From contig NZ_CP141821.1 in the NCBI RefSeq assembly GCF_035621495.1, forward strand, positions 1,144,760 to 1,208,759: a stretch of 64,000 bases of DNA, read 5' to 3'. The notes under the pieces are model-generated. The model saw only the letters and a list, made by a program, of their open reading frames with translations, had not been told where the DNA came from and ran no database searches. Position numbers and translations under genes: made by a program. The stretch comes from Thermococcus sp. SY098 (GTDB lineage Archaea > Methanobacteriota_B > Thermococci > Thermococcales > Thermococcaceae). Position 1 is the stretch's first letter; each line of letters begins with the position of its first letter. Shown here one piece after another: positions 7,260 through 10,219 of this stretch.

Positions 7260-8615
7260 ATGAAGCTCTTTGGAACAGCTGGAATTAGGGGCCCTATTGA
7301 CTCCAAAGTAACCCCAGAACTGGCATTAAACGTTGGAAAAGCCTTGGGGACATACATTAATTCTGGGAAGGTTGTAATTGGTAGGGATGCCAGAACTTCA
7401 AGTGTAATGCTGGAGAATGCCCTCATAAGCGGGTTGCTGAGCACAGGATGTGATGTGATAGAGCTGGGCTTAATACCAACTCCCATGCTTGCTTGGGCAA
7501 CTAACAAGTTAGGCGATGCAGGGGTTATGATAACTGCCTCACATAACCCCCCAACAGACAACGGAATCAAGGTATTTAACGAAAATGGTGTTGAATTCTA
7601 CCTGGAACAGGAAGAAGAGCTTGAAAGAATAATCTTCTCCCAAAGCTACAAAATAGCAAAATGGGATGAAATAGGGGAAGTTAAAAAGCTGGATTTAAAA
7701 GAAAGATACATAAATGCAGTGCTAAAATTTGTGGAACATGAAACGAATCTCACGGTTCTGTATGATGGGGCGAATGGAACCGGCAGTATGATAGCCCCAT
7801 ACCTCCTAAGGGAAATGGGGGCAAGAGTAATCTCAATTAATGCTCATTTGGATGGACACTTTCCGGGTAGAAAACCAGAGCCAAGGTATGAGAACATTGC
7901 ATATCTTGGAGATCTCGTTAGACAACTGGGTGTTGATTTAGCAATAGCTCAAGATGGTGACGCCGATAGGATAGCAGTTTTTGATGAAAAGGGAAACTAC
8001 ATTCCAGAGGATACACTAATCGCACTCTTTGCCAAACTCTATGTGGAAGAAAACAAAGGTGGGGTCGTTGTTACATCAATAAATACGAGCTTTAGAATCG
8101 ATAAGGTTGTCCAAGATGCAGGGGGAAAGGTTTATCGTGTACCATTAGGTCAGCTCCATGATGGTATAAAGAAATATCATGCAATTTTTGCTGCCGAACC
8201 TTGGAAGTTCATTCATCCAAAATTTGGAATGTGGATTGATAGCTTTGTAACGATGGGGCTTCTAATCAAGCTGATTGACGAAGAAAAGAGACCTCTTTCA
8301 GAGATCGTTAAAGATATACCTCAGTATCCGTTGATAAAGAAGAATGTTAAATGTCCAGACGAGCTGAAGCCAAAAGTTATGGAAGTTGCAAGAAATGAGC
8401 TTGAAAGAAAGCTGAAAGACGAGATTAAAGAAGTTCTCACAATTTCTGGAGTAAGGTTCAATCTTAAAGATGGATCATGGGTTTTGGTAAGACCCTCTGG
8501 AACAGAACCGAAAATCAGAGTTGTTGTGGAAGGACAGACAGAAAAGAAAATGAGGAAACTATTTGAATTAGCCTATGGCATAGTTTCAAAGGCTCTGACC
8601 TCCTCCCTGCCGTGA
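7260..8615 (+). CDS. glmM: Phosphohexomutase (phosphoglucosamine/phosphomannomutase family), 3' end altered by an IS
   Basis: Alpha-D-phosphohexomutase moving phosphate between C1 and C6 of a hexose or hexosamine, 451 residues, typical length. The catalytic phosphoserine loop TASHNP (Ser94), the metal loop DGDADR (232-237) and the phosphate loop RPSGTEP (from 411) are all intact. The start has GGTGGTG upstream. The last six residues (LTSSLP) and the TGA are encoded by the terminal sequence of the adjacent IS element; the host frame ends at Ala445. If the host flanks are rejoined at the shared GGCT, a TGA follows the Ala codon directly, so the native protein probably ended there. The added tail is unlikely to affect the active site. 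Substrate (GlcN versus Man or Glc) cannot be told from sequence alone. Confidence 0.9.
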   Translation: MKLFGTAGIRGPIDSKVTPELALNVGKALGTYINSGKVVIGRDARTSSVMLENALISGLLSTGCDVIELGLIPTPMLAWATNKLGDAGVMITASHNPPTDNGIKVFNENGVEFYLEQEEELERIIFSQSYKIAKWDEIGEVKKLDLKERYINAVLKFVEHETNLTVLYDGANGTGSMIAPYLLREMGARVISINAHLDGHFPGRKPEPRYENIAYLGDLVRQLGVDLAIAQDGDADRIAVFDEKGNYIPEDTLIALFAKLYVEENKGGVVVTSINTSFRIDKVVQDAGGKVYRVPLGQLHDGIKKYHAIFAAEPWKFIHPKFGMWIDSFVTMGLLIKLIDEEKRPLSEIVKDIPQYPLIKKNVKCPDELKPKVMEVARNELERKLKDEIKEVLTISGVRFNLKDGSWVLVRPSGTEPKIRVVVEGQTEKKMRKLFELAYGIVSKALTSSLP

Positions 8616-8720
8616 ACGGCGAGGGTTCAGCTTAATCCCTCGCCAGTGAGGGGGAGGTTTGAGGAGCTTCATAGCCTAAATTCAGCCCCTCTGGCTCGGT
8701 CTTGAGCCAGTTACCCCTAC
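8595..8720 (-). ncRNA. Predicted omega RNA (reRNA) region of the TnpB element
   Basis: In TnpB systems the guide scaffold comes from the 3' end of tnpB plus the right end of the element, with the guide read from flanking DNA. Here this stretch has a perfect 8-bp stem (8618-8625 with 8637-8644) whose loop holds the tnpB stop codon. It also has a competing right-end hairpin that reuses the same CCTCGCC strand. The predicted guide would begin at 8594 and read AGCCTTTGAAACTATGCC, antisense to the end of the phosphohexomutase gene. The upstream limit is arbitrary. Confidence 0.4.
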
Positions 8721-9927
8721 CTGCCGTTAAACCCGGCAGGCTCGGGGTTATGGTTTTCACGATCTTCCTCAGAATATTAAACGCTCCTACCAAATCAGCA
8801 TTCATTACAACACCCTCTCTGCGACACTTAAACAAACCTCTAAAAATACGTCCGTTTGGATGGCGTTGGCCACAGAGAGGGCAGGATTGAGAAGTAAAAG
8901 CCTCATCCGTAATTATAACAGAAATACCATACTCCTCAGCAACTTCCCTAAGTCGTTTAATGACGTAATTAAAACGCCAAACATGAGAGAGGAGAAAGTT
9001 TTGCTTTCTGCCCTTATCGGAATTTCTTGCAATTTCTTTGGGATAACCGACCACGATTTTTGAGACTCCCAAATAGTAGAGTCTTTCAACAGTCCGCCTA
9101 ACTGCAGTATTAATGTAATGCTTCGCCTGGAGTTTTATCTTCTCATGCATTTTCTTAAGTCTTCTACTCTTTTTTGAACCTGACTTATTGATTTTAGACT
9201 GATACTCAGCAATCCTCTTCTGCCAGTAAAAGGCTATGCTTTTTAGTGGTCTGCCATTCACAAGAAAGCTTTTACCGTTCTCAACGTAAACAGCCATTAA
9301 ATTGTTTACGCCCAAATCTACCCCAGCAGTTAAGTTACCTTCTGGTTCTCTTGGTTGTTTAACCCATTTTCCTCCGATTAGTTTCTCCTCTACGTTAAAG
9401 TTAATGTGAGCATACCACTTTCTCTTAGCGTCATCGTAAACGATTTCTAACCTCCCCTGCCTGCCCTTCCAGTGAATTCTCCCCTTGAATTGAATCCTCA
9501 GTCTACCAAATTTTCCGAGCCTCCTCAGCTTGATAACATTTCCTTCAATCCGATACTGGTCGTTCCTGAGAGGAATGATGAAAAGTTTTTCGCCGTTTTC
9601 TTCCTTGACGAATTTCGGTGGCTTGGGCTTGAACCACCCGGGAAGTTCTCTGGACTTTTTCTTCTTGTTAAGTTTGAAGAAGCTTCTCCAAGCTTCGGCA
9701 TTCTTTCTTGCCAATTGCTGAACTGTTGAACCACCAATCCAATCTTTAAAGCAGTAATAAGCCTCTTTTTCCGTTCCGTTAAAGTCTATTTTCCCGAATT
9801 CCTTGAATTGCTTTAGTCTCTGGTAGTTAATTTTGTTCCAGATTATGGCTGTAGCTTGAGCTAACTCGAACAAAATCTTTTCTTGTTCCTTTGAAGGTTG
9901 AAGTTTTACCGTTACTGTTCGCCTCAT
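8632..9927 (-). CDS. tnpB: TnpB RNA-guided nuclease (IS605 OrfB) with relocated RuvC-II glutamate
   Basis: A 431-residue TnpB: N-terminal OrfB-type helix-turn-helix/wedge region, RuvC-I motif AGVDLGVNN (Asp204), zinc-ribbon region (Cys349, Cys352, Cys368) and RuvC-III motif MNADLVGA (Asp378). At the usual RuvC-II position (normally I/V-V-x-E-D) the protein reads IVVGYPKE with Gly294. Acidic residues occur instead in IITDEAFTS (Asp341/Glu342), next to the zinc ribbon. The fourth zinc-ribbon Cys is also missing (CRREG). It starts with ATGA overlap to the RHH gene. The frame is intact and the three-carboxylate set can be completed with Glu342, so activity is plausible. The biological role in these elements is element maintenance at vacated sites (known for the family). 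Confidence 0.93.
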   Translation of the reverse strand: MRRTVTVKLQPSKEQEKILFELAQATAIIWNKINYQRLKQFKEFGKIDFNGTEKEAYYCFKDWIGGSTVQQLARKNAEAWRSFFKLNKKKKSRELPGWFKPKPPKFVKEENGEKLFIIPLRNDQYRIEGNVIKLRRLGKFGRLRIQFKGRIHWKGRQGRLEIVYDDAKRKWYAHINFNVEEKLIGGKWVKQPREPEGNLTAGVDLGVNNLMAVYVENGKSFLVNGRPLKSIAFYWQKRIAEYQSKINKSGSKKSRRLKKMHEKIKLQAKHYINTAVRRTVERLYYLGVSKIVVGYPKEIARNSDKGRKQNFLLSHVWRFNYVIKRLREVAEEYGISVIITDEAFTSQSCPLCGQRHPNGRIFRGLFKCRREGVVMNADLVGAFNILRKIVKTITPSLPGLTAGRGNWLKTEPEGLNLGYEAPQTSPSLARD

Positions 9928-10079
9928 TCCTCTTCCCGTTCGACTTTTTTAATCCAGTCAAGGATTGCCTGTTCGGCAGCAATGCTCAAAGCTCCCCTTC
10001 TATCCCCATAGAGTTTTTTGACAAGTTCTCTGAACTTTTTCTCTACATCATCTCGGAGATAAATATCTATTCTACCCAC
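9924..10079 (-). CDS. Small ribbon-helix-helix (CopG-like) protein encoded with TnpB
   Basis: A 51-residue ORF, GTG start with GGGTGG upstream, ending in an ATGA overlap with tnpB. The product begins MGRIDIYLRDDVEKKFRELV: one short strand with alternating polar and hydrophobic residues (RIDIYL) followed by two predicted helices (DDVEKKFRELVKKLYG, ALSIAAEQAILDWIKKVE). This is the layout of a ribbon-helix-helix DNA-binding dimer. An inverted repeat, CACTATT-N8-AATAGTG, overlaps its start codon, which suggests autorepression of the RHH-tnpB transcript. The fold assignment is by eye; an antitoxin-like or purely regulatory role cannot be distinguished. Confidence 0.75.
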   Translation of the reverse strand: MGRIDIYLRDDVEKKFRELVKKLYGDRRGALSIAAEQAILDWIKKVEREEE

Positions 10080-10098
10080 TATTAACCACCCAATAGTG
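10077..10098 (-). promoter_or_regulatory. Inverted repeat over the RHH/tnpB start, possible operator
   Basis: The perfect 7-bp inverted repeat CACTATT-N8-AATAGTG has its distal half overlapping the GTG start. An AT-rich TATA-like stretch (10107-10120, minus strand GTTTAAATAG) lies just upstream. Position and symmetry fit binding by the RHH dimer encoded immediately downstream; binding itself is inferred. Confidence 0.5.
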
Positions 10099-10219
10099 AG
10101 TATGAGTGTTAAACTATTTAAACTTTAAACTTTTTGACTTTCCTCCAAAAGTGCTGAATTTTTAGTTTTTATGTCCCACCCTAAAGGGCGAGGCTTGAAA
10201 AAAGAAAAAATCACAAAGT

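What the first reader, a model, noticed from the sequence alone, without database searches (positions are those of the whole stretch)
9924..10098. RHH mini-gene translationally coupled to tnpB, with a palindrome across its own start
A 51-codon ribbon-helix-helix-like ORF overlaps tnpB by ATGA. The inverted repeat CACTATT-N8-AATAGTG overlaps its GTG start. The element thus appears to carry an autoregulated repressor-nuclease module instead of the usual tnpA-tnpB pair. Such a pairing could limit TnpB levels, or behave like an antitoxin-nuclease unit.
Basis: partly seen in the sequence, partly recalled or inferred. Interest (0 to 1): 0.72.

Follow-up and report, generated by a model that had tools for sequence, protein, structure and literature searches.

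The report
Antitoxin-derived autorepressor riding with TnpB nuclease
In heat-loving Thermococcus-type archaea, many jumping genes that carry the RNA-guided DNA cutter TnpB have, in front of it, a tiny gene-switch protein related to toxin-antitoxin pairs, which probably keeps its own and the nuclease's production low.

Summary
A 51-codon GTG-start ORF (9924-10079, -) overlaps tnpB (8632-9927, -) by ATGA; CACTATT-N8-AATAGTG lies at 10077-10098 over its start. The ORF is a genuine ribbon-helix-helix (RHH) gene: homologues occur in 39 of 94 Thermococcaceae genomes, dN/dS is mostly 0.01-0.15, and most lie directly upstream of tnpB. The pairing recurs with three TnpB lineages (IS605-like, IS607-like, TIGR01765-type), in the slot otherwise held by tnpA or serine recombinase, or empty. 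Outside the family, most homologues are VapB-type antitoxins before PIN toxins; on plasmid pTI1 one sits CopG-like before the primase-polymerase. TnpB-linked proteins keep only the DNA-binding domain. The tnpB Shine-Dalgarno lies inside the RHH gene (27/32; 1/39 in tnpB-only elements). Leaders co-vary with RHH type, and one RHH-plus-leader cassette is shared by two unrelated element types.

The palindrome itself is weak: p about 0.06 against shuffles, perfect only here and in L005. No binding was tested. Best reading: a CopG-like autorepressor, shared with VapB-type antitoxins, limiting TnpB dosage. A literal toxin-antitoxin pair is unlikely because the toxin-binding tail is absent. New variant of a known kind.

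The parts
9924..10079 (-). RHH gene, 51 aa, GTG start (MGRIDIYLRDDVEKKFRELVKKLYGDRRGALSIAAEQAILDWIKKVEREEE); strand region residues 2-8, helices 10-24 and 30-50 in the model
   Evidence: relatives match Pfam RHH_6 to 3e-7, RHH_1; AF2 mean pLDDT 94, two helices; purifying selection
8632..9927 (-). tnpB, 431 aa, RNA-guided endonuclease TnpB family; canonical RuvC-II Glu apparently replaced (VVGYPKE), RuvC-III NAD present
   Evidence: OrfB_IS605 5.8e-30, Cas12f1-like_TNB 3.6e-15; NF040570 165.8 bits, cut-off 100; active-site remark read by eye
10077..10098 (-). Inverted repeat CACTATT-N8-AATAGTG over Shine-Dalgarno and GTG start: candidate operator
   Evidence: p about 0.06; group A columns
10115..10122 (-). 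Putative TATA box TTTAAATA
   Evidence: read; similar position in relatives
10086..10090 (-). Shine-Dalgarno GGTGG of the RHH gene, in the spacer of the inverted repeat
   Evidence: read
9928..9933 (-). Shine-Dalgarno-like AGAGGA for tnpB, inside the 3' end of the RHH gene
   Evidence: such a motif in 27 of 32 RHH-tnpB loci, 1 of 39 tnpB-only loci
8594..10208 (-). Whole IS605-like element (ends approximate, a few bases uncertain); LE hairpin near 10175-10195, RE with omega-RNA-type region near 8594-8700
   Evidence: empty sites in L128, L129, L130, L131; omega RNA location inferred from family knowledge
7260..8615 (+). Host phosphohexomutase-type gene whose last codons are replaced by the element's right end
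   Evidence: C-terminal end differs in uninterrupted relatives; gene name recalled from sequence, not searched

Best explanation
The small gene encodes a dimeric RHH autorepressor, in effect the DNA-binding half of a VapB-type antitoxin, used by TnpB elements. It is first in a two-gene operon with tnpB. The dimer binds short repeated sites between the TATA box and its own start codon and represses transcription of both genes; tnpB, whose ribosome-binding site lies inside the RHH gene, is translated from the same message by coupling. The effect is CopG-like dosage control: a brief burst of TnpB when the element enters a new cell (no repressor yet), then a low steady level that limits damage and cost. 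Shown here: the gene is real, conserved, under purifying selection, coupled to three TnpB lineages, related to VapB-type antitoxins and to an RHH in copG position on a plasmid, and inherited together with its leader. Inferred: dimerisation, DNA binding, repression, the burst and the benefit.
For: RHH in 39/94 Thermococcaceae genomes, most directly upstream of tnpB; three TnpB lineages, in the slot of tnpA or serine recombinase. Purifying selection. tnpB SD inside the RHH gene 27/32 versus 1/39. Leader tracks RHH after controlling for TnpB and LE. RHH type D plus leader shared by an IS605-like element (L025) and IS607-like elements (L103, L104) while LE and TnpB differ. In group A the leader is at least as conserved as the coding sequence, with CAC-n-AT..AT-n-GTG in 7 of 7. 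Outside relatives: VapB-type RHH before PIN toxin; pTI1 RHH 2 nt before primase-polymerase, the layout of copG-repB. Window TnpB sits in a 100%-supported clade with RHH in 11 of 12.
Against: No binding or expression data. The exact palindrome is not significant alone and is not kept by compensatory changes. TnpB-only leaders also carry a conserved CATAC[CT] motif (36/39), so leader conservation need not mean RHH binding. Leader and RHH are adjacent, so co-inheritance may be plain linkage; within clade 1 the leader also tracks TnpB (partial r 0.32). Foldseek gave no significant PDB match for the monomer model.
Confidence: 0.62

Rival explanations
1. The RHH binds TnpB (or its omega RNA) directly and blocks nuclease action: a true antitoxin-toxin pair with TnpB as toxin.
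For: Homologues are VapB-type antitoxins whose toxins are also nucleases, with the same operon layout. RHH retained in nearly all of one TnpB clade.
Against: The TnpB-linked proteins are 51-54 aa and end where the VapB-type proteins (79-132 aa) continue into the tail that normally holds the toxin. RHH type D serves two TnpB types of about 27% identity, which argues against a specific protein contact. tnpB without RHH is common.
Confidence: 0.12
2. The RHH acts on transposition: it binds element ends or the promoter of a transposase supplied in trans, regulating mobility rather than TnpB dosage.
For: It occupies the tnpA slot and these elements are non-autonomous. CATAC-type motifs recur in tnpB-only leaders.
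Against: Leader distance follows RHH type after controlling for LE distance; RHH type D occurs with two LE types.
Confidence: 0.12
3. The inverted repeat acts as an mRNA hairpin that hides the RHH start codon, and the RHH protein has another role.
For: RNA folding of the window leader gives -8.4 kcal/mol, z -3.1; L005 z -2.6.
Against: Hairpin not conserved (L007 z -0.56, L003 z -0.91). A start site 22-24 nt after the TATA box would cut off the left arm (inferred), leaving -1.5 kcal/mol; an AU-rich stem is unstable at growth temperature (general knowledge).
Confidence: 0.06
4. The small gene is a hitchhiker or relic with no role for the element.
For: tnpB-only and tnpA-tnpB relatives exist in numbers without it.
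Against: Strong purifying selection, three TnpB lineages, swaps of RHH type together with its leader.
Confidence: 0.06

Closest known systems
VapBC toxin-antitoxin modules with RHH-type VapB (PIN-domain toxin)
   Same: Homologous RHH domain (42-57% identity over the domain), first gene, overlapping or adjacent to the downstream nuclease gene
   Different: No PIN toxin; the C-terminal antitoxin tail is absent; the downstream gene is TnpB
CopG-RepB copy-control operon (recalled) and the pTI1 RHH-primase/polymerase pair
   Same: Very small RHH protein, first gene before a dosage-sensitive DNA enzyme, abutting or overlapping it, candidate operator over promoter and start
   Different: Carried by a transposable element; downstream gene is an RNA-guided nuclease; binding not shown
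IS200/IS605 and IS607 TnpA-TnpB elements
   Same: LE/RE layout, tnpB, overlap of the upstream gene with the tnpB start
   Different: RHH instead of Y1 transposase or serine recombinase, so non-autonomous
Omega repressor of pSM19035 (recalled)
   Same: Small RHH that binds direct and inverted short repeats; group A leaders have CAC-type copies in direct and inverted order
   Different: No sequence relation tested; controls plasmid genes

Membership tests
Ribbon-helix-helix (MetJ/Arc/CopG) DNA-binding proteins | Sequence match to an RHH family model | tested here: met
   14 of 28 aligned members match Pfam RHH_6 (best 3e-7, limit E 1), 10 match RHH_1; the window protein itself has no significant hit but aligns without gaps to those members
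Ribbon-helix-helix (MetJ/Arc/CopG) DNA-binding proteins | beta-alpha-alpha fold forming a dimer | tested here: inconclusive
   AF2 monomer: N-terminal extended segment plus two helices, pLDDT 94; Foldseek PDB no match with E under 1; dimer not modelled
Ribbon-helix-helix (MetJ/Arc/CopG) DNA-binding proteins | Sequence-specific DNA binding | not testable with these tools
   needs a binding assay
VapBC toxin-antitoxin system | Downstream PIN-domain toxin | tested here: not met
   Downstream gene is TnpB; PIN found only next to outside relatives
VapBC toxin-antitoxin system | Antitoxin C-terminal toxin-binding tail | tested here: not met
   51-54 aa against 79-132 aa
CopG-like autorepressor operon | Small RHH gene first in an operon with overlap or coupling to a dosage-sensitive gene | tested here: met
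CopG-like autorepressor operon | Conserved symmetric operator in the promoter | tested here: inconclusive
   Leader conserved, palindrome only partly
CopG-like autorepressor operon | Repression of its own promoter | not testable with these tools
   needs a reporter assay
IS200/IS605 TnpB element | tnpB of the RNA-guided TnpB family within an element with empty sites in relatives | tested here: met
IS200/IS605 TnpB element | Own Y1 transposase tnpA | tested here: not met
   No tnpA ORF in the element; this is common for solo tnpB elements

The most novel reading that the evidence does not exclude
Antitoxin-type DNA-binding domains have been recruited repeatedly as swappable regulatory cassettes by TnpB elements of several lineages, and the RHH acts also in trans on incoming or RHH-less TnpB elements that share leader motifs, giving element-level immunity and copy control of a population of RNA-guided nucleases in one genome.
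Probability: 0.2. Interest if true: 0.78.

Novelty: new variant of a known kind. Interest (0 to 1): 0.62.

Why it matters
TnpB elements are usually described as tnpA-tnpB or tnpB alone. How expression of their RNA-guided nuclease is restrained is open; the control described in the paper I could read acts at the RNA level (PMC10278001). A dedicated transcriptional repressor, related to toxin-antitoxin systems and swapped between unrelated TnpB elements, would be a dosage-control layer for relatives of the ancestors of Cas12, directly testable in genetically tractable Thermococcus.

Tried and rejected
The palindrome as a strong stand-alone signal: rejected as such. ATACT as an RHH-specific half-site for groups B, C, E: not specific, also in 28 of 39 tnpB-only leaders. 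Foldseek of the monomer: uninformative. Viral contigs and phages: no homologue. The phylum-wide search repeated the class-wide one. RHH tree: too few columns; it hints at several origins among VapB-type proteins but with weak support. Literature: ten searches found no description of an RHH upstream of tnpB; two key TnpB papers are not held, so a prior description cannot be excluded.

Full report
Observation. The window lies in a 2.03-Mb genome (G000:C1:1144760-1208759) whose named relatives by this gene are Thermococcus. On the minus strand a 51-codon ORF with a GTG start (9924-10079) overlaps tnpB (8632-9927) by ATGA. TnpB is confirmed by Pfam and NCBIfam. The inverted repeat CACTATT-GGGTGGTT-AATAGTG spans 10077-10098, with the Shine-Dalgarno GGTGG in the spacer and the GTG start in the right arm. 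The element is an insertion absent from four congeners, giving ends at about 8594 and 10208.

Is the small ORF a gene? Yes. A protein search found homologues in 39 of 94 Thermococcaceae genomes. In the loci held with enough flank the next gene is a tnpB, with few exceptions: a standalone group (L109-L111, L117), the plasmid RHH (L020/L175) and degraded copies. Pairwise dN/dS is mostly 0.01-0.15, with synonymous sites often saturated. Half of a 28-member alignment matches Pfam RHH_6 at a loose limit (best 3e-7), the window protein alone does not. The model has the two helices of the fold at high confidence; the structure search of the monomer was uninformative.

Three TnpB partners. The RHH precedes (1) IS605-like TnpB of the window type; (2) IS607-like TnpB of about 27% identity, where sister elements have a serine recombinase in the same place; and (3) a TIGR01765/TnpB-related protein with a 40-nt overlap. 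In a sample of 73 clade-1 TnpBs (chosen, not random), 28 have RHH, 39 no partner and 6 a Y1 tnpA; the RHH label needs 12 changes on the tree, and well-supported branches alone force at least 3. The window TnpB is in a clade with full support in which 11 of 12 have RHH.

Ancestry. A pattern scan of 84,980 species genomes found few homologues outside Thermococcaceae, all longer (67-132 aa). In eight of these loci the next, overlapping or adjacent gene is a PIN-type protein (five checked by Pfam, 1e-11 to 2e-15; the other three look alike by sequence), i.e. VapBC-type pairs; one, L073, has no such partner. The scan is not exhaustive. The TnpB-linked proteins stop at 51-54 aa, so they keep the DNA-binding domain and lack the tail. 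A related RHH on Thermococcus indicus plasmid pTI1 sits 2 nt before the primase/polymerase gene, the layout of copG-repB. The direction of change (antitoxin to TnpB partner) is inferred.

Coupling. In RHH-tnpB loci a Shine-Dalgarno-like motif precedes tnpB inside the RHH gene in 27 of 32; in tnpB-only loci in 1 of 39. With a 4-nt overlap the RHH leader most simply drives both genes.

Regulation in cis. The 48 nt before the RHH start are 79% identical between this element and L007, while the first half of the RHH gene is 68%. Leader distance correlates with RHH distance after controlling for TnpB and LE distance (partial Mantel 0.31 all, 0.41 clade 1, 0.37 clades 1+2; p 0.001); the converse with TnpB is nil in the mixed sets and 0.32 within clade 1. 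L025 (IS605-like) and L103/L104 (IS607-like) share the RHH type D and its leader, but not LE or TnpB: a natural cassette swap. RHH types differ at the strand positions 3, 5, 7 expected to touch DNA (R-D-Y in group A; expectation from the known fold), and group A leaders share CAC-n-AT...AT-n-GTG in 7 of 7. Against this, the exact palindrome is only p about 0.06 in the window, 0.01 in L005, and is degraded elsewhere without compensation; the right arm is also constrained by the start codon.

Mechanism. The best-supported reading is a CopG-like autorepressor limiting RHH and TnpB together. The strict toxin-antitoxin reading fails two defining features (PIN toxin, antitoxin tail), although 'works like the autoregulated operon of a toxin-antitoxin pair' stands. 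TnpB helps insertion sequences fix in plasmids (PMC11870625) and described TnpB control is at the RNA level (PMC10278001); a repressor would allow a burst on entry and a low level later. That last step is inference.

Novelty. No held paper describes it (ten searches), but two key TnpB papers were not readable. I rate it a new variant of a known kind.

Noticed in passing
L135, L047, L150, L050, L041 (leaders of another TnpB subgroup, proteins starting near TYLTQKNHL): A TnpB subgroup without RHH has its own strong palindrome over the ribosome-binding site, e.g. CACCTATTA-N5-TAATAGGTG in L135.
   Followed up: no
tnpB-only loci, e.g. L056, L057, L059, L061, L138-L174: 36 of 39 tnpB-only leaders hold CATAC[CT] in the last 30 nt (often CATACCATACTTT) and lack a Shine-Dalgarno; possible initiator or operator for a trans-acting factor.
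   Followed up: partly
window 8632-9927: Window TnpB appears to lack the canonical RuvC-II glutamate (VVGYPKE) and has only three zinc-finger cysteines; resembles the RuvC-II rearranged TnpBs of PMC10278001. Read by eye.
   Followed up: no
L112-L124: A TIGR01765-type TnpB-related protein without zinc finger in Thermococcaceae, with an RHH in front overlapping by 31-40 nt; function unknown.
   Followed up: partly
window 8594-8615: The element's right end supplies the last codons and stop of the phosphohexomutase-type gene, changing its C-terminus against the uninterrupted relatives.
   Followed up: partly
L109, L110, L111, L117: A conserved standalone RHH (MRQLHVLIPDELDEEF...) with a conserved long leader, upstream of a 588-aa unknown protein in L110; not linked to tnpB.
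   Followed up: no
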